Translations under genes and position numbers: made by a program
Virus record (IMG/VR): IMGVR_UViG_3300005436_000501
Span: 1-64,000 of that record
Length of the DNA stretch: 64,000 nucleotides
Direction: 5' to 3' (one strand)
Source of the DNA: a virus
Notes under the pieces: generated by a model
The model's input: the letters and a program-made list of their open reading frames with translations, nothing else
The model's database searches: none
Told to the model about the DNA's origin: nothing
In this document: piece by piece, positions 10,822-60,681 of the stretch
How the letters are laid out: the number at the start of each line of letters is the position of its first letter
Position numbering within the stretch: the first letter of the stretch is position 1

Positions 10822-12024
10822 TCACGCTTCCAAATGCATGCGGTCGGCGATGCGGCGCAGCCGTTCCCCGCTGCGGCGCTGGCGGGTGAGCAGTGCCCGC
10901 ACCGCGGAGCGGGCCATGGGATGGTTGCGCACCAGCAGCGGCGCGGTGCGCTCCGCGGTCTCCAACTCGGCCAGGGCCTGGTCGTAGGCGCCGTGGTAGA
11001 GGGCGCCGCGGGCGACGTCCAGGTGGTAGTGGCCGCGGCGCGACGGGGGCAGGGTGCGGGGCAGGTGGGTGGAGTCGGCGAGTTCCAGGGCGCGGGCGCC
11101 GTCGCGCATCTCCACCGCGACCGCGACCCCGTGGATCTGCACGTTCGCCTCGGAGAAGGTGAGTTCGTAGGGGTCGTATCCGGGGGGTGTGGCGGCGGCG
11201 GCCTCCTCGGCGAGGCTGATGCGGTCCCAGGCTTCCATGGCGTCGCAGGACCGTGCGGCGGTGATCGCGGCGCGCAGTTGCAGGCTGCCCCACACGGAGC
11301 GGTCCGCGGGCAGCGCTGCGGGGTCGAGGCGCCCGGCGGCGGCGTCGATCACGCCGAGGGCGTCGCTCCACAGGTCGAGCGACCACAGTTCGCGCACGCG
11401 CAGGTAGTCGCCGACGGCGGGCAGCCGCGGGTCCCCGGATTTCGCGGCGGCCCACCGGAACCGTTCGGTGGCGAGGGTGGACAGGTCGTCGTAGCCGAGG
11501 GCGTGCGCGACCGTGTCCGCCTCCTTGTACGCGGCGGCGAGCAGCCCGTACAACTCCTCGGCCGCAGCGCCCTGCGCGGCGGCGCAGGCGGCGTGCAGTT
11601 CCCGCAGCACGTCCGGTGCGGCCTCGCCGAGGTGCGCGTAGCGGGCGGCGCGCCGCAACCGGGTCAGCTCCCGCACCGACTCGCGCAGCGCCTGAACGGG
11701 CCGCGGTTCGATCGGCCAGTCCGGGGGCAGGTCGTAGCGTTGCACGACCCGGCGGATCGCGACGATCGCCGCATGGCCGCGGTCCTCGGTGGGGGATCCG
11801 GGGTTGTAGGGGCGGCCGGTGACCTCGTTGGGGTGGACGTTCAGGATGCGTGCGGCCCGGTTGATCAGGGTCACGGAGTCGATCTCGAGGTCGCCCTTCT
11901 CGACCGCGGACGCCCACTGCTGCGAGCGTTTCATCCGCTGCCCGAAGTCGGCCTGGGTCAGGCCGGCGCGTTTGCGCAGGCGGCGGATGCGGGCGCCGTC
12001 GGTTTCGGGCGTGTCAACGGTCAC
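10822..12024 (-). CDS. XRE-family regulator with TPR-like C-terminal domain
   Basis: 400 aa. Residues 12-66 are a Cro/C1 helix-turn-helix (LRKRAGLTQADFGQRM, SQQWASAVEKG); the rest is a long array of Ala- and Leu-rich helix pairs typical of TPR-containing actinobacterial XRE regulators that sense peptides or partner proteins. No ribosome site precedes the GTG, and a TACGTT element ends 6 nt upstream, so the message may be leaderless. Divergent from the flavoprotein. Confidence 0.8.
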   Translation of the reverse strand: MTVDTPETDGARIRRLRKRAGLTQADFGQRMKRSQQWASAVEKGDLEIDSVTLINRAARILNVHPNEVTGRPYNPGSPTEDRGHAAIVAIRRVVQRYDLPPDWPIEPRPVQALRESVRELTRLRRAARYAHLGEAAPDVLRELHAACAAAQGAAAEELYGLLAAAYKEADTVAHALGYDDLSTLATERFRWAAAKSGDPRLPAVGDYLRVRELWSLDLWSDALGVIDAAAGRLDPAALPADRSVWGSLQLRAAITAARSCDAMEAWDRISLAEEAAAATPPGYDPYELTFSEANVQIHGVAVAVEMRDGARALELADSTHLPRTLPPSRRGHYHLDVARGALYHGAYDQALAELETAERTAPLLVRNHPMARSAVRALLTRQRRSGERLRRIADRMHLEA

Positions 12025-12097
12025 TTTGTCAACGTAGTGTGGCGCAGGCGTGGCGTGGGAGGCTTTGGCCTGGTCGTTACACGGGGGGAGCAGCGGG

Positions 12098-12589
12098 ATG
12101 CCGGTTGTGTATCTGGTGGTGTGCGGTGCGCCCCCGGCCGCGCAGACCCCGGAGGCGGTTCAGGCGCTGCAGGGCGACGGCTGGGTGGTGTGTGTGGTGG
12201 CGACACCGTCGGCGCTGGCGTTCCTGGACGTCGAGGCGGTGGAGGCGCTGACGGCTCCGTATCCGGTGCGGTCGCATCCGCGGGCACCGGACCAGCCGGA
12301 CCCGCTCCCGCCGGCCGACGTGGTCGTTGTCGCGCCGCTGACGTTCAACACGGTCAACAAGTGGGCGGCGGGGGTCAGCGACACGCTCGCGCTCGGGCTG
12401 CTCAACGAGCTGCTGTGCTCGGGACTACCGGTGGTCGCGGGCGTGTGGGCGAAGGAGGCGTTGCGGCGGCATCCGGCGTATCCGCGCAGTGTGGAAGTGC
12501 TGCTGGGCGCGGGGGTGGTGTTCGTGGGCGAGGGGTCCGGGCCGGACGGGTTCCCGTGGGATCAGGTGCGCGCGGCGCTGCCGGGGTAG
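12098..12589 (+). CDS. flavoprotein, PPC decarboxylase-like fold
   Basis: 163 aa from the ATG preceded by GGGGAG. N-terminal VVYLVVCGAPPA, a VVVVAPLTFNTVNKWAAG segment and SDTLALGLLNELL match the HFCD flavoprotein family (FMN-binding, related to phosphopantothenoylcysteine decarboxylase). Divergent pairing with an XRE-TPR gene is, to my knowledge, recurrent in Streptomyces; substrate unknown. Confidence 0.75.
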   Translation: MPVVYLVVCGAPPAAQTPEAVQALQGDGWVVCVVATPSALAFLDVEAVEALTAPYPVRSHPRAPDQPDPLPPADVVVVAPLTFNTVNKWAAGVSDTLALGLLNELLCSGLPVVAGVWAKEALRRHPAYPRSVEVLLGAGVVFVGEGSGPDGFPWDQVRAALPG

Positions 12590-13627: not shown

Positions 13628-15301
13628 TCAGCCGCGAATGAACCCGGTGACCAACTGCGGCAGCGACGCGTCGAACCCCGCGATGTTCAACGCCCCCGGA
13701 TCACCAGGATCCGCGATCGAACGACCCGTCGCCGTCATCGCCGCGACCACCGTGCGCGCATTCGGGTTCACCTGCGCCCGGTACGCCGCGAACTCCTGCA
13801 CCGGATGCGCCCGCCCCGCCCACGTCTCGTTGTCCGTGAGCACCAGCACCCCGTCGACGTTCAGCCGCTCGCGGCGCGCCCACGCATACGGCAGCGACAG
13901 ATCCGTGCCCCCGCCCGACGGGCTCCACGCCGCGACCTCGCGCAGGTTCGTGCGCCCCGTGACCCGCGACGGGCGCACTGCCGTGTCCACGTCGATCACA
14001 TGCACGTTGCCGCGCTCGATGCGCGCCATGATGACCGCCATCGCGCACCCGATCTCGTACGGCGACCCCAGCGGCGAACCGCCCACCGCGACCCGGGCAC
14101 CCCATGCGCCACCCATCGACCCGGACGAGTCCACCGCGACCAGCAGCCGCCGGCCGGAGGGCTGCACATTTCCGAACGACAACTCGTACGACTCCTCGAG
14201 GGCGTCGAGGACCGCCGGGACCGGCGCCCACGTCTGCACCTGCGCCCGCGGGTTCGGCTGGGCCCGCCCGGATGCGTACACCCGCAGCGCGAGGAACACG
14301 TCAAACGGGTGGATGCGCCCCTTGGCCAGCGACTGCGCGTCGGTGAGCCACCCTGCGGCGCGCCGGGTGGCGTCGCCCATGGGCCTGAGCGCCCCGATGC
14401 GGGTCATCCGCGCGAGGTTGCGGATCAGCGCGGTCATGCCGACGGTGTCGACCAGCGCCTCCCACACCTGCGGGGAGGTCAGGACAGCGTCGGGCAGGAA
14501 CTCCCACGGCACCTTCTGTTCCGTGACCACCCGCACCGCCTGCGCCGGGGTGGTGACGGACTTCGCGGCCAGGAACCGGTCGACGCTCGGCAGCGCGGCG
14601 CGCGCCTGCTCGTCGGCGACGTTTCCCGCGATCCACCCGAACAACGCGCGGCGCGCCTCGCTGTCGGCCTGCGGGTGGCCCAGGCGCAGCAGGTCGCGCA
14701 GCGCGAACGGCTCGCCGGTCGGGGTCTTGCGCGCCATGGCCTTGCACGCGGAGAACGCGATGTCGTCCGGCTCCCCGGCGAGCAGCAGGTCGCCGAGGGC
14801 GCCGCGCACGACCCGCCCGGTCTTCGGCGCGCTGCCGTTGCGCCCGGCGGGCTTGCCGTGCAGGTTCTTCCAGTAGCCGAAGAACGCGGCCCGGTGGTTG
14901 GTGGTGCGCGCGACCTTCGGCAGTGCGAGCCGCGCGGCGCGGCGGGTGTCGAGGTCGCCGCGGGTGATGGCGGCGGCGAGCAGGAACAGCGCGGGCTCGT
15001 TGCGCGGTGCGCGCGGCGGGCGGCTCGCGGAGACGTCCACGGCCAGGGCGACGGCGCGGGGGCCGTCCTGCGCGACGGCGCCGAACACGACGGGCACGTT
15101 GTCGAGGGTGAGTTCCTTCTCGCCGACGTAGTAGGTGCCGCCGGTGGTGCCGAGGATGAGGAAGTCTTCGAGGCGGGTGAAGGTGTCCTTGGCGAACACG
15201 TAGCCGCCTGCGGCGTTGGATACCTGGTCGGTGCGGCCGGGGATGGGCTGTGTCTGCGGGGTGCGCAGGGTGGTGACGTCCGCGAGCGGGTCACGGGGCA
15301 T
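13628..15301 (-). CDS. rsr: Ro60-family RNA-binding protein (TROVE plus vWA)
   Basis: 557 aa, close to the usual length of bacterial Rsr and human Ro60. The first about 340 residues are the HEAT-like TROVE ring; residues about 385-545 are a vWA domain with an intact MIDAS: DSSGSM (391-396), GGTDLS (464-469) and LTDN (488-491). Ro60 rings bind misfolded RNA ends in the pore and Y RNAs on the outside; in Deinococcus and Salmonella Y RNA tethers Ro60 to PNPase. GAAGGA lies 7 nt before the ATG. A YrlA-like element ends 47 nt upstream on the same strand. Phage-encoded Ro60 homologues are known. Confidence 0.92.
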   Translation of the reverse strand: MPRDPLADVTTLRTPQTQPIPGRTDQVSNAAGGYVFAKDTFTRLEDFLILGTTGGTYYVGEKELTLDNVPVVFGAVAQDGPRAVALAVDVSASRPPRAPRNEPALFLLAAAITRGDLDTRRAARLALPKVARTTNHRAAFFGYWKNLHGKPAGRNGSAPKTGRVVRGALGDLLLAGEPDDIAFSACKAMARKTPTGEPFALRDLLRLGHPQADSEARRALFGWIAGNVADEQARAALPSVDRFLAAKSVTTPAQAVRVVTEQKVPWEFLPDAVLTSPQVWEALVDTVGMTALIRNLARMTRIGALRPMGDATRRAAGWLTDAQSLAKGRIHPFDVFLALRVYASGRAQPNPRAQVQTWAPVPAVLDALEESYELSFGNVQPSGRRLLVAVDSSGSMGGAWGARVAVGGSPLGSPYEIGCAMAVIMARIERGNVHVIDVDTAVRPSRVTGRTNLREVAAWSPSGGGTDLSLPYAWARRERLNVDGVLVLTDNETWAGRAHPVQEFAAYRAQVNPNARTVVAAMTATGRSIADPGDPGALNIAGFDASLPQLVTGFIRG

Positions 15302-15348
15302 GGCTGTGTCCTTCGGTTCGACCCGCCGCGCGGCGGATGTGGGGTGGG

Positions 15349-15500
15349 CGCGGATGTGGGTGGTGACTGCCGGGTTTTACGCGCTCTATCCGCTGAGCTA
15401 CGGGAGCCATGTGGGGCTCCCGGCTGGATTCGAACTTGGACTCGGACCAAGATCTCTCGCTTAAGAGGCGATAACCGGCGCTCTTCGACCCGTCCCCGCG
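15349..15500 (-). ncRNA. YrlA-type Y RNA, circularly permuted tRNA mimic
   Basis: Read 5' to 3' leftward: end stem CGCGG and GGGT, the core GTCGAA, then GCCGG. Next come a side hairpin ending in the tRNA-Lys-like loop CTCTTAA, a T-arm-like hairpin CTTGG-TCCGAGT-CCAAG and TTCGAATCC. These are followed by an acceptor-like 8-bp stem CGGGAGCC/GGCTCCCG closed by CCACAT, a canonical D-arm GCTC-AGCGGATA-GAGC, and the returning CCGGC, ACCC and CCGCG. T-arm before acceptor before D-arm, with free ends where the anticodon stem should be, is the layout I recall for YrlA RNAs. Directly upstream of Ro60. Confidence 0.62.
15470..15491 (-). repeat. repeat copy 1, GTCGAA-containing
   Basis: Leftward GGGTCGAAGAGC followed by GCCGGTTATC, the 5' strand of the YrlA-like RNA. 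A second copy with one insertion and two substitutions is at 15581-15603. The shared block suggests a common Ro60-binding site. Confidence 0.6.
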
Positions 15501-15560
15501 TGTTCTCGCGTGACCCGCCGTCGGGAGCGGCCCGGATGTGTTGGCGCCGAAGCGGCCGAT

Positions 15561-15608
15561 GGACACCGGGGAATCAGCAAGATAACCGATGCTCGTTCGA
15601 CCCGGACC
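15561..15608 (-). ncRNA. second small Y-RNA-like hairpin
   Basis: CCGGG pairs with CCCGG around GTCGAACG (an exact fit to GNCGAAN(0-1)CG) and an inner hairpin ATCGG-TTATCTTG-CTGAT. The 5' strand is the second copy of the repeat found in the YrlA-like RNA. Lacks a T-arm or acceptor, so it would be a simple Y RNA beside the tRNA-like one. Confidence 0.45.
15581..15603 (-). repeat. repeat copy 2, GTCGAA-containing
   Basis: GGGTCGAACGAGC followed by ATCGGTTATC on the minus strand; compare copy 1 at 15470-15491. Distance between copies is about 110 bp. Confidence 0.6.
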
Positions 15609-53416: not shown

Positions 53417-54333
53417 CACGCACCCGCCTTCGCTGTCTTGCGCGGACCGGAGACGAAGTACAGTGAGTACCGGTCCGGGAAGTCCGGGCTCGGCCGGAAA
53501 TCCAGCACCCGATCCCCGCACTGCACCCGACCGCCCTCATCCGGGCGCAGACCGTCGAGCGCGCCCTTCAGGCGGCTGGACCTGTCGGTCAGCTCCTTGA
53601 TCTGCTTGCGGACCTGCCACAACTCCTCGGCGAACTTCGCCGCGTCCGGGTCCTCCACGAGCAGCACGGACAGCCGATCCCGCTCGGGAACGTGCCCCTG
53701 CCAGCAGATCCCGCCGTCCTCACCCCCGAACGGGCAGCCGCGGCAGAACACCGAATCCGGGTCGTGGTCGCGCGGCAGCATCCCCAGCTCGGTGTCGCGG
53801 ATCTGCGCGAGCCACGTGAACGCGTCCCGCACGTGCCGAACGTCGAACGGCCCGGACCACACCCACTCCTCGCCCGTGTCGCGGGCGAGGTAGTCCAGCT
53901 GGACGCGCTCAACCGGGTGTCCCTCGGCGATCAGCGCGGCGCCGTAGCAGTTGACCTGCCACATGTGACTGATCTCCGGGCCGTTGAGCATGATGTGCTC
54001 AAGCCAGCGCGACGAGGTGGTCTTCGTGTCTGCGACCTTGCGCTCCGCGGCCTCGTACCGGTCGAGGTGGCCGAGGACTCCCGCGAAGCGCACCTCGTGC
54101 TCGACGAGGTCGTGCGGCCCCTTGGTGTCCTTGAGTACGTCGGCGACCATGTCGTGGATCGCCGACCCCATGACGGCCTGCACGCTGCCGGACGGGTTGA
54201 CCGGCTCGGTGCCGGCGAGCTTGTAGCCCACGCGGCGACGGCACGAACCGAGATCGGACATCCCGATCTCGCGCTGACGGCTGCGCGGCCGCCGCTGGTC
54301 GGCGATCAGCAGGAGCTCTGCGGTGGTCGTCAC
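53416..54333 (-). CDS. Cas4/RecB-like PD-(D/E)XK nuclease with iron-sulfur-type Cys cluster
   Basis: 305 aa. Cys31 (DLGSC), His60, GHLDRYEA (Asp91), VADTKT (Asp102, Lys104), then CRGCPFG and GGIC (Cys197, 200, 210): the four-Cys layout that holds an Fe-S cluster in Cas4/AddB-type exonucleases. Directly downstream of the RecT-like gene, so it probably supplies the ssDNA that RecT anneals. GTG in a GTGA overlap. Confidence 0.78.
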   Translation of the reverse strand: MTTTAELLLIADQRRPRSRQREIGMSDLGSCRRRVGYKLAGTEPVNPSGSVQAVMGSAIHDMVADVLKDTKGPHDLVEHEVRFAGVLGHLDRYEAAERKVADTKTTSSRWLEHIMLNGPEISHMWQVNCYGAALIAEGHPVERVQLDYLARDTGEEWVWSGPFDVRHVRDAFTWLAQIRDTELGMLPRDHDPDSVFCRGCPFGGEDGGICWQGHVPERDRLSVLLVEDPDAAKFAEELWQVRKQIKELTDRSSRLKGALDGLRPDEGGRVQCGDRVLDFRPSPDFPDRYSLYFVSGPRKTAKAGA

Positions 54334-55226
54334 GGCGCGTCGCCGATCGTGCCCTGGACGCCGCCCATGGCCGGGTCGTGCTCGTCGTCGTAGTGGCCGG
54401 TCTGGCCGCATTCGGTGCACACGTTCATCTCGCGCGCCGGGTCGGCGGTCTGGGTCTGCTGCGTGAAGTCGAACTCCTCGGCGATGCGCCCGACTTCCGC
54501 GCGCGCGGCCGCCGGCTCGACGAGTTCGGCCTCTTCGATCACTGTCGCCGCAGGCGCGGCTGGCGTCGGGTCGGCGGTGTGGAACACGCCGGGGGCGTCC
54601 TCCCCCTGCTCGTCGTCGAGTTCCTCGCCTTCGGCGTAGAAACCCATCGCGACCTCGGGGCAAATGAACCTCGCGCAGTTCGAAACCGCACGGGCGAGGG
54701 TCATACGGCGCGGGTGCGCCTTCCAGATGTCCTTGTTCGCCAGCCCGGCGGTCTTCGCGTCGTCGAGGTCGAACTTCTCCGTGTGCATCGCGCCGGTGTC
54801 GCCGCGCACGATCGTCATACGGCAGTGCCGCTCGTCGTGGTCCGGCTCATACCGGTGGTCGGCGCGCGAGCCGCCCGGCTGGTGCTCCTCGCCGGCGCCG
54901 TCGCACGTCTTGCACGGAACGAACGCGCGGTGGCCGGCGCGGCGCAGCAACGCCAGCCATGTCTGTGCGGCGAGCGTGGGGCGGCTGTTGACGACGTAGA
55001 TGCCCTGGATCGACTGCATCGGGGCCAGACCGACTTCCTGCCCGTAGAGCAGGATCGCGAGCACGTCGGAGGGCTTGCCGCGCAAGTCCTTAGGCATGAG
55101 CCCGGCCATGGCGAGCGCCTGGGAGAGCCGGTAGGCCTCGTCGAGGCCCCTGAGGGGAACTCCGACATTGACGGCGATCTTCTTCGGTTGACGGGTGGCG
55201 ACTTCGGTGCTGGTAGGCGTGCTCAC
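54330..55226 (-). CDS. recT: RecT-family single-strand annealing protein
   Basis: 298 aa. LSQALAMAGLMPKDLRGKPSDVLAILLYGQEVGLAPMQSIQ followed by IYVVNSRPTL is the RecT core; DIWKAHPRRMTLARAVSNC and CPEVAMGFY are the second conserved block. A CKTCDGAGEE insert is unusual, and the C-terminus carries CTECGQTGHYDDEH, a zinc-knuckle-like tail. Anneals complementary ssDNA during phage recombination. Confidence 0.85.
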   Translation of the reverse strand: MSTPTSTEVATRQPKKIAVNVGVPLRGLDEAYRLSQALAMAGLMPKDLRGKPSDVLAILLYGQEVGLAPMQSIQGIYVVNSRPTLAAQTWLALLRRAGHRAFVPCKTCDGAGEEHQPGGSRADHRYEPDHDERHCRMTIVRGDTGAMHTEKFDLDDAKTAGLANKDIWKAHPRRMTLARAVSNCARFICPEVAMGFYAEGEELDDEQGEDAPGVFHTADPTPAAPAATVIEEAELVEPAAARAEVGRIAEEFDFTQQTQTADPAREMNVCTECGQTGHYDDEHDPAMGGVQGTIGDAP

Positions 55227-59175: not shown

Positions 59176-60681
59176 TCAGCGCAGCCAGTCGAACTCGTAC
59201 CGCTGCGGGGTGACCGCGCGCATCCCCTTGCCCCCCGGGAACAGGGTCACCCGCACCAGCCCCCGGATCGCCGCACGCCGCTGACGCATGTCGAACTCGT
59301 CACGCCACACCGTGCGCGCCCCCGGTCCCGCCAGCCGGCGCAGCACCACCGGCACCGTCGCGTCCCGCGCCCGCTCCCGCGCCGCCTCGATCAGCGGCGT
59401 CAGATGCGCCTGCAACGCCATGAACTCGCCGACCGGCAACGCCATCCGCCCGTCCCTCACCGTCGCCGCGAGCACCCGCGCCTGCGCAAGCTGATCCTCC
59501 ATCGCCGCCGCGTCCGCGAGCGCCGCCCGCACCGCGTCGCCGCCGTCCGCGGGCGCCAGCGACGCCGCGAACCCCGGCTGCTCCACCCGCTTGAACACCG
59601 CCATCGTCACCAGCGCGTCCAGGGCCGGCTCCCGCATCGACACCCGGTAGCACTTCCGGCACGTGTACGACCACCCGGCCGCCGACCGGGTGGGGCGCAA
59701 CACCCGCACCGGCTCCTCCGAACCCGGGGCCCGCGTCGCGGCGCACACCCCGCACAGCACCAGCGCGGACAGCAGGTGCGTGACGTCCGAGTCACGGTTC
59801 ACCCGCCGTCCGTCCGCCGTCAGGACCCTGCGCAGACCGTAGTAGGTGACCTCGTCGAGGATCGGCTCCCACGTCGCGTCGACCATGGTCTGGTGGTGCT
59901 GGCGTTTGCCGACGTTCGACAGCCGCAGCAGCAGTCCGCGCACCGCGAGCTGCGACCACTCTTTCGCGTGCGGCGCCGGCACGGCGCGCGCGTTGAGATC
60001 CTTCGCGATCGAGTACATCGACTCGCCCGCGAGGACCCGCGCCGCGCAGTCGCGCACCACCGCGGCCTGCTCCTCGTGCAGGACCTGGCGCAGCAGCGCG
60101 CCCGTGTCCGGGTCGTACTCGCGCCGCCACCCGTACGCGATCCGGCCGTGCGGGCGGCCGCGTTCCGCGTTCAGGCGCACGGTGCGCAGGTTGTTGTCGC
60201 GGATGCGGTCCACGTCGCGTTCCGCGAGCAGCGCGTCGAGGTGTGCGGTGAACCGGTCGTCGGAGCACTCCATGTCGAGCAGGCGCCCGTTGATGCACAG
60301 CAGGATCCCGCGCCGCTCGCACAGGTCTTGCAGCACCAGGTAGGAGCGGGTGTTGCGGTTGGCGCGGGAGGACTCCCACACCACCACCACGTCGCATTCG
60401 CGGACCTCGTCGTCGACGTCCAGGCGCCGGACCATCTCCTCGTAGTCCGGGCGGCCCCGTTTCGCGTAGCGGGACGCGGAGCGTCCCGGGTCTTCGAAGG
60501 TGTCGGCGACGACCCATCCGTGCGCCTCGCACAGGCGCCGGTTCTCCAGGTCCTGGTCGCGGATCGAGGTTCCGCCGCGCGGGTTCAGGCGCGAGTTGCG
60601 GTCGTAGATGAACGCCCGCAGCGGGGTGCCCGGTGCCGGGCGGGCGGCGGCGCCGGGGCGCCGGGTTCGCGGTTTCGCCAT
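59176..60681 (-). CDS. int: large serine recombinase (phage integrase)
   Basis: 501 aa. Catalytic domain with YDRNS (Ser30 nucleophile), DPGRSAS, VVVVWESSRANRN (the paired Arg) and RGRPHGRIAYGWRRE recombinase domain, then the zinc ribbon CGVC...CRKC and a coiled-coil C-terminus. Such enzymes insert phage DNA between attP and attB without other factors in one direction. Convergent with the membrane gene; attP is expected next to it. Confidence 0.92.
   Translation of the reverse strand: MAKPRTRRPGAAARPAPGTPLRAFIYDRNSRLNPRGGTSIRDQDLENRRLCEAHGWVVADTFEDPGRSASRYAKRGRPDYEEMVRRLDVDDEVRECDVVVVWESSRANRNTRSYLVLQDLCERRGILLCINGRLLDMECSDDRFTAHLDALLAERDVDRIRDNNLRTVRLNAERGRPHGRIAYGWRREYDPDTGALLRQVLHEEQAAVVRDCAARVLAGESMYSIAKDLNARAVPAPHAKEWSQLAVRGLLLRLSNVGKRQHHQTMVDATWEPILDEVTYYGLRRVLTADGRRVNRDSDVTHLLSALVLCGVCAATRAPGSEEPVRVLRPTRSAAGWSYTCRKCYRVSMREPALDALVTMAVFKRVEQPGFAASLAPADGGDAVRAALADAAAMEDQLAQARVLAATVRDGRMALPVGEFMALQAHLTPLIEAARERARDATVPVVLRRLAGPGARTVWRDEFDMRQRRAAIRGLVRVTLFPGGKGMRAVTPQRYEFDWLR

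What the first reader, a model, noticed from the sequence alone, without database searches (positions are those of the whole stretch)
15349..15500. Circularly permuted tRNA mimic upstream of a phage-type Ro60 gene
The sequence folds by eye into T-arm, loop-closed acceptor-like 8-bp stem, canonical D-arm, and a long end stem with GTCGAA. This order is that of a permuted tRNA, as reported for YrlA RNAs that bind Ro60 and mimic tRNA. It lies 47 nt before the Ro60 start codon on the same strand. The element would be a mobile Ro60 RNP.
Basis: partly seen in the sequence, partly recalled or inferred. Interest (0 to 1): 0.85.

Follow-up and report, generated by a model that had tools for sequence, protein, structure and literature searches.

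The report
Phage Ro60 with tRNA-mimic Y RNA
A viral genome carries the ring protein Ro60 together with a small RNA that imitates a rearranged tRNA, and just before the protein's start codon it repeats the RNA's protein-docking site, as if the protein switched off its own production.

Summary
On the minus strand at 15491-15352 lies a YrlA-type bacterial Y RNA. A covariance model built from 34 relatives, without this sequence, finds it at 68.9 bits (E 4.5e-16), and 18 of 21 predicted pairs show two-sided changes in the relatives. The adjacent gene (15301-13628) is a full-length Ro60. YrlA near Ro60 is a known kind, phages included, so that part is a new member. This copy has a disturbed T-arm (about 12 nt inserted).

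Two further features surfaced.

(1) Between the YrlA and the Ro60 start codon (15341-15318), a hairpin repeats the Y RNA's Ro60-binding helix in swapped order, CAC[AUCCGCC]gcgc[GGCGGGU]CGAA, ending just before the Shine-Dalgarno sequence. Such hairpins precede Ro60 in many lineages (38/147 leaders versus 10/910 control leaders), including Streptomyces phages whose Y RNA lies elsewhere. They covary, and their variants track the same locus's Y RNA. I propose Ro60 represses its own translation through this mimic.

(2) Most YrlAs carry an anticodon-like arm with a variable triplet (34 triplets). In all 11 loci with several such copies, the triplets differ.

I found neither described, but the primary Y RNA papers were not readable here. 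No RNA or binding data exist.

The parts
13628..15301 (-). Ro60 (Rsr) gene, 557 aa, full-length ring protein with TROVE and vWA (MIDAS D391xS393xS395) regions
   Evidence: PF25045 1.4e-38, PF05731; 2NVO 1.9e-79; 1YVP 8e-65; phrog_850
15318..15341 (-). Leader hairpin CAC[AUCCGCC]gcgc[GGCGGGU]CGA(A), copying both strands of the Y RNA Ro60-binding helix in swapped order; followed by the Shine-Dalgarno-like GAAGGA and the ATG at 15301
   Evidence: family-wide tests
15352..15491 (-). YrlA-type Y RNA (permuted tRNA mimic with Ro60-binding end stem)
   Evidence: cmsearch 68.9 bits, E 4.5e-16 with a model that excludes it; alignment covariation
15483..15491 (-). 5' Ro60-binding box GGGUCGAAG of the YrlA
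   Evidence: sequence; conserved in relatives
15457..15471 (-). Anticodon-like arm UCGC-CUCUUAA-GCGA (triplet CUU)
   Evidence: 36 of 60 YrlAs versus 0.3 expected
15424..15451 (-). T-arm region, disturbed: CUUGG-UCCGAGU-CCAAG plus a second T-loop-like UUCGAAUCCAG
   Evidence: sequence; alignment shows the extra bases
15401..15422 (-). Acceptor-like stem closed by a loop: CGGGAGCC-CCACAU-GGCUCCCG, 8 bp
   Evidence: fold, covariation, coordinates
15383..15400 (-). D-arm UAGCUCAGCGGAUAGAGC
15352..15358 (-). 3' Ro60-binding box CACAUCC of the YrlA
   Evidence: sequence
15529..15608 (-). Probable second Y RNA without a tRNA-like domain: GGUCCGGGUCGAACGAGCAUCGGUUAUC...CACAUCCGGGCC
   Evidence: box and outer-helix match; weak model match 13.0 bits in a 451-base search; fold -35.6 kcal/mol; coordinates

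Best explanation
This is a viral Ro60-Y RNA module with built-in feedback. The YrlA (15491-15352, minus) binds Ro60 through its end helix (GGGUCGAAG/CACAUCC) and presents a four-armed, circularly permuted tRNA mimic (anticodon-like, T, acceptor and D arms) to a partner, as in known Ro60-YrlA-PNPase particles. A second, tRNA-less Y RNA probably lies next to it. The leader of the Ro60 mRNA carries the same Ro60-binding helix as a hairpin that ends a few bases before the Shine-Dalgarno sequence. Ro60 not occupied by Y RNA would bind it and block initiation on its own mRNA, so that Ro60 supply matches Y RNA supply, as ribosomal proteins repress their mRNAs by mimicry of rRNA. Shown: sequence, covariation, lineage spread and linkage to Ro60. 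Inferred: transcription, binding, repression. My estimates: YrlA identity 0.95; leader hairpin is a Ro60 site 0.7; autorepression 0.55.
For: YrlA. Ro60. Leader: in 134 non-redundant leaders the best hairpin is followed directly by YGR (the bulge box) in 41, shuffles 5.9 (maximum 12 of 200); held-out loci 5 of 13 versus 0.38 in shuffles; strict definition 38/147 Ro60 leaders versus 10/910 other ORF leaders, odds ratio 31. The base before the 5' arm, able to pair with the G after the bulge, is a pyrimidine in all 41 hits listed. Covariation in 23 distinct Streptomyces-phage leaders: 93.9% of cells paired versus 86.5% shuffled, 9 two-sided changes versus 4.0, 0/500 shuffles as high; outermost pair GC, AU and UA. 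Leader and Y RNA boxes agree within a locus (bulge base 48/49, closing base 40/49), including UUGA variants in both (L004, L008) and AAGU in both (L060). In Streptomyces phages the Y RNA lies about 700-800 nt upstream beyond other ORFs, yet the hairpin still sits directly before Ro60. The longer Streptosporangiales form of the pattern occurs 5 times in IMG/VR, 4 of them directly before Ro60. Known determinants of Ro60 binding (helix, bulged C, opposite bulge): PMC4726728.
Against: Most Ro60 leaders lack the strict hairpin (109 of 147), so it is optional. The leader copy lacks the inner helix on the other side of the bulge, which may matter for affinity. In the window the 53-nt leader has an alternative fold slightly better than the hairpin, and its energy is not better than shuffles. 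Lineages are related, so the P-values overstate independence, and the Y RNA/leader agreement is partly phylogeny. The A/G position after the bulge does not agree better than chance. The short pattern form also precedes non-Ro60 sequence (27 of 35 hits). No expression, binding or reporter data.
Confidence: 0.68

Rival explanations
1. Ordinary viral YrlA plus Ro60 only; the leader hairpin is a passive remnant of a collapsed tandem Y RNA array (3' box of one copy joined to the 5' box of the next).
For: Tandem arrays give exactly this order of boxes at each junction, and several Streptosporangiales loci have 2-4 copies.
Against: The hairpin keeps pairing, bulge base and position 12-25 nt before the start across distant lineages, and exists in Streptomyces phages where the Y RNA is separated by other ORFs. 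A remnant should decay. Origin from a junction and present function are compatible.
Confidence: 0.2
2. The hairpin is a plain RNA-stability or attenuator structure, or a terminator for the Y RNA, unrelated to Ro60 binding.
For: GC-rich hairpins before start codons are common, and the pairing alone could serve stability.
Against: No U-run and no terminator call. The single-stranded YGR box and the pyrimidine opposite it are conserved, which stability alone does not require.
Confidence: 0.1
3. The leader hairpin brings Ro60 and its PNPase partner to its own mRNA and controls decay rather than initiation.
For: Ro60-Y RNA-PNPase (RYPER) degrades structured RNA (PMC8394870).
Against: The hairpin has no tRNA-like effector domain, and its position beside the Shine-Dalgarno sequence favours an effect on initiation.
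Confidence: 0.15
4. The tRNA-like part with its variable anticodon loop is a decoy for host anticodon nucleases, and the Ro60 module is a counter-defence.
For: 34 different triplets, all 11 multi-copy loci use different ones. Competitive inhibition of an anticodon nuclease was proposed for Salmonella YrlA, which itself is not cleaved (PMC7790460).
Against: Chromosomal bacteria have them too. Triplet diversity could merely reflect descent from different tRNAs. No data on nucleases.
Confidence: 0.2

Closest known systems
YrlA RNAs of Salmonella, Mycobacterium smegmatis and other bacteria and phages (Chen et al. 2014; structure PDB 6CU1, Wang et al. 2018)
   Same: Ro60-binding end stem, permuted T-acceptor-D order, loop-closed acceptor stem, position next to Ro60
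   Different: This copy has a disturbed T-arm. An anticodon-like arm with variable triplet is present in most of the set; the review I could read names only D, T and acceptor arms (PMC8394870).
Deinococcus radiodurans Rsr with Y RNA and PNPase (RYPER)
   Same: Ro60 protein (2NVO, E 1.9e-79) with Y RNA
   Different: Carried by a virus; a partner nuclease was not sought; Ro60 leader hairpin described here
Autogenous repression of ribosomal protein operons (for example L1, S8, S15), in which the mRNA leader mimics the rRNA site
   Same: An RNA-binding protein whose own mRNA leader copies its RNA target beside the ribosome-binding site (works-like comparison, own knowledge)
   Different: The target here is a noncoding Y RNA and the protein is Ro60; repression not yet shown
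Salmonella rsr-yrlBA-rtcBA RNA repair operon
   Same: Ro60 with YrlA
   Different: No RtcB in this 127-kb record; Y RNAs upstream rather than downstream; no sigma-54 control examined

Membership tests
YrlA-type bacterial Y RNA | Encoded next to a Ro60 gene | tested here: met
   Ro60 gene 13628-15301 same strand
YrlA-type bacterial Y RNA | Long stem from the two ends with the GNCGAA-type Ro60 box and bulged C | tested here: met
   GGGUCGAAG 15491 and CACAUCC 15352. The outer helix in this copy is short.
YrlA-type bacterial Y RNA | Permuted tRNA order T-arm, acceptor with loop, D-arm | tested here: met
   68.9-bit match to the family model
YrlA-type bacterial Y RNA | Canonical T-arm able to be a TruB substrate (a property reported for YrlA; not needed for recognition by the family model) | tested here: inconclusive
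   The T-arm of this copy carries about 12 extra nt, and the better-paired arm has UCCGAGU instead of UUCGANN (sequence), while relatives are canonical. Whether the enzyme still acts cannot be tested here.
YrlA-type bacterial Y RNA | Stable small RNA bound to Ro60 | not testable with these tools
   No RNA-seq or binding data
Ro60 (TROVE plus vWA ring protein) | Full-length homology to solved Ro60 proteins and MIDAS motif | tested here: met
   invariant D391, S393, S395, T466, D490
Autogenously repressed RNA-binding protein (works-like) | mRNA leader copies the protein's RNA site beside the ribosome-binding site | tested here: met
Autogenously repressed RNA-binding protein (works-like) | Protein lowers its own translation through that site | not testable with these tools
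   needs a reporter assay

The most novel reading that the evidence does not exclude
Bacterial and phage Ro60 is under autogenous translational control by a Y-RNA-mimicking leader hairpin that coevolves with the Y RNAs, and the YrlAs are four-armed permuted tRNAs whose anticodon triplet varies between copies in a locus, so that an array displays a set of anticodon loops, possibly as decoys for tRNA-cleaving host defences.
Probability: 0.3. Interest if true: 0.85.

Novelty: new variant of a known kind. Interest (0 to 1): 0.62.

Why it matters
How bacteria balance Ro60 against its Y RNA partners is, as far as I know, an open question. A Y-RNA-like operator in the Ro60 leader makes it directly testable with a reporter and a gel shift. 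The variable anticodon-like arm gives the tRNA mimicry of YrlA a concrete, testable purpose and would be of interest to work on RNA repair and phage defence.

Tried and rejected
Rfam at gathering and permissive thresholds gave nothing for this locus, and ARAGORN no tRNA, as expected for a permuted molecule. A simple terminator or promoter reading failed: none found. RtcB was sought in the record and not found, so the RNA-repair-operon reading is not supported here. A sample of 296 actinobacterial genomes gave only 3 Ro60 matches, so held-out leaders were taken from viral contigs instead. A loose motif-first test of the leader was replaced by hairpin-first tests, because selecting on pairing biases covariation counts. 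The shared-neighbour analysis found no conserved flanking genes except among Herbidospora species and two or three small sets of close loci. Chen 2014, Wang 2018 and the Wolin reviews were not held, so priority for the leader hairpin and the anticodon-like arm could not be checked.

Full report
What is there. The window is part of a 127,094-base viral record. On its minus strand a Ro60 gene (15301-13628) encodes 557 aa that match Deinococcus Rsr and vertebrate Ro60 over nearly their whole length. I collected Ro60 loci from viral contigs, bacterial genomes and annotated phages. A simple scan found T-loop, hairpin and D-arm units upstream of Ro60 in most of them, often several in tandem (its tally of 95 loci includes some ordinary tRNAs).

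The YrlA. A model built from 34 relatives without the window matches the window at 15491-15352 minus with 68.9 bits and E 4.5e-16, and nowhere else in the record. In the alignment 18 of 21 consensus pairs keep pairing through two-sided changes: T-arm, acceptor, D-arm and inner helix. The window copy deviates in the T-arm, where about 12 extra nucleotides create two T-loop-like pieces; the better-paired one has C in place of the usual U55. A second box pair upstream (15608-15529) with a strong outer helix is probably a Y RNA without the tRNA-like part. It is less certain.

The anticodon-like arm. Right after the conserved GUUA the YrlAs form a short stem with a 7-nt loop of the form [C/U/A]U-NNN-[A/G]A. 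This holds for 36 of 60 non-redundant copies, against 0.3 in shuffled sequence, with ten different stem pairings. The window has CUCUUAA. Over all loci 34 triplets occur, and in every one of 11 loci with more than one such copy the triplets differ (L029 and L030 are near-identical loci). The molecule is thus a four-armed tRNA opened between D-arm and anticodon arm, where the Ro60 stem is attached. A review I could read names only D, T and acceptor arms (PMC8394870).

The leader hairpin. Printing the leaders of all Ro60 genes showed CAC[AUCCGCC]gcgc[GGCGGGU]CGAACCGAAGGACACAGCC-AUG in the window and look-alikes elsewhere. This is the Ro60-binding helix of the Y RNA with its two strands in the opposite order, closed by a loop where the Y RNA has its free ends. 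Known Ro60 sites need the helix, the single bulged C and the opposite bulge (PMC4726728). Tests: best-hairpin-first in 134 non-redundant leaders, 41 followed by YGR versus 5.9 in shuffles; held-out set 5 of 13 versus 0.38; strict form 38/147 versus 10/910 other ORF leaders; covariation in Streptomyces-phage leaders, which were not chosen for pairing; agreement of leader and Y RNA boxes within loci. It occurs in Streptosporangiales and their viruses, Myxococcota, Nocardia, Streptomyces phages and several unrelated large viral contigs. In Streptomyces phages the Y RNA is separated from Ro60 by other genes, so the hairpin is not simply the end of a Y RNA array. The longer pattern form finds Ro60 directly downstream in 4 of 5 places in all IMG/VR contigs; the short form also hits other sequence (27 of 35), as a short motif should. 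In leaders without the hairpin, the last Y RNA often ends within about 20-45 nt of the start codon, so a Ro60 site near the ribosome-binding site may be even more common. This is only a trend.

How it most likely works. Y RNA binds Ro60 and offers the tRNA mimic to a partner nuclease or tRNA enzyme, as in the known particles (established for other species; inferred here). Ro60 in excess of Y RNA binds the leader hairpin, covers the Shine-Dalgarno sequence and lowers its own synthesis (inferred). The portable module then keeps its protein and RNA in proportion in any host. Portability is suggested by the viral record with a serine integrase and RecT and by the lack of shared neighbours among related loci.

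Limits. No transcription or binding data. P-values ignore shared ancestry. In the window the leader can also fold otherwise. The key Y RNA papers were not readable, so novelty of the leader hairpin and of the anticodon-like arm rests on not finding them in the papers searched and on my own knowledge. That YrlA RNAs occur next to Ro60 in phages as well as bacteria is from my memory of Chen et al. 2014.

Noticed in passing
window 15424-15451 minus: The T-arm of this YrlA holds two T-loop-like pieces (UCCGAGU and UUCGAAU), about 12 nt longer than in relatives; partial duplication or decay.
   Followed up: partly
YrlAs of L004, L008, L022, L029, L081, L082, L101, L162, L169, L190: Tandem YrlAs of one locus carry different anticodon-like triplets (for example GUU, CGU and UCC in L004).
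   Followed up: partly
L233, L257, L265: A hairpin of the same form (AAUGCCC-acgtca-GGGCCGAAAGGA) precedes a gene starting MPREKLEPDSS, whose N-terminus looks like a DNA polymerase clamp loader; chance or a second Ro60 target.
   Followed up: no
window 59179-60681 minus and 54333-55226 minus: Serine integrase and RecT-like protein, so a temperate phage is likely.
   Followed up: partly
window 10822-12589: HTH_31 regulator next to a flavoprotein gene, a pair I know from actinobacterial chromosomes; the left part of the record could include host DNA or cargo.
   Followed up: no
L003, L004, L006, L008: These viruses have U instead of C at the bulge of the Ro60 box in their Y RNAs; L004, L006 and L008 have it in the leader too.
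   Followed up: partly
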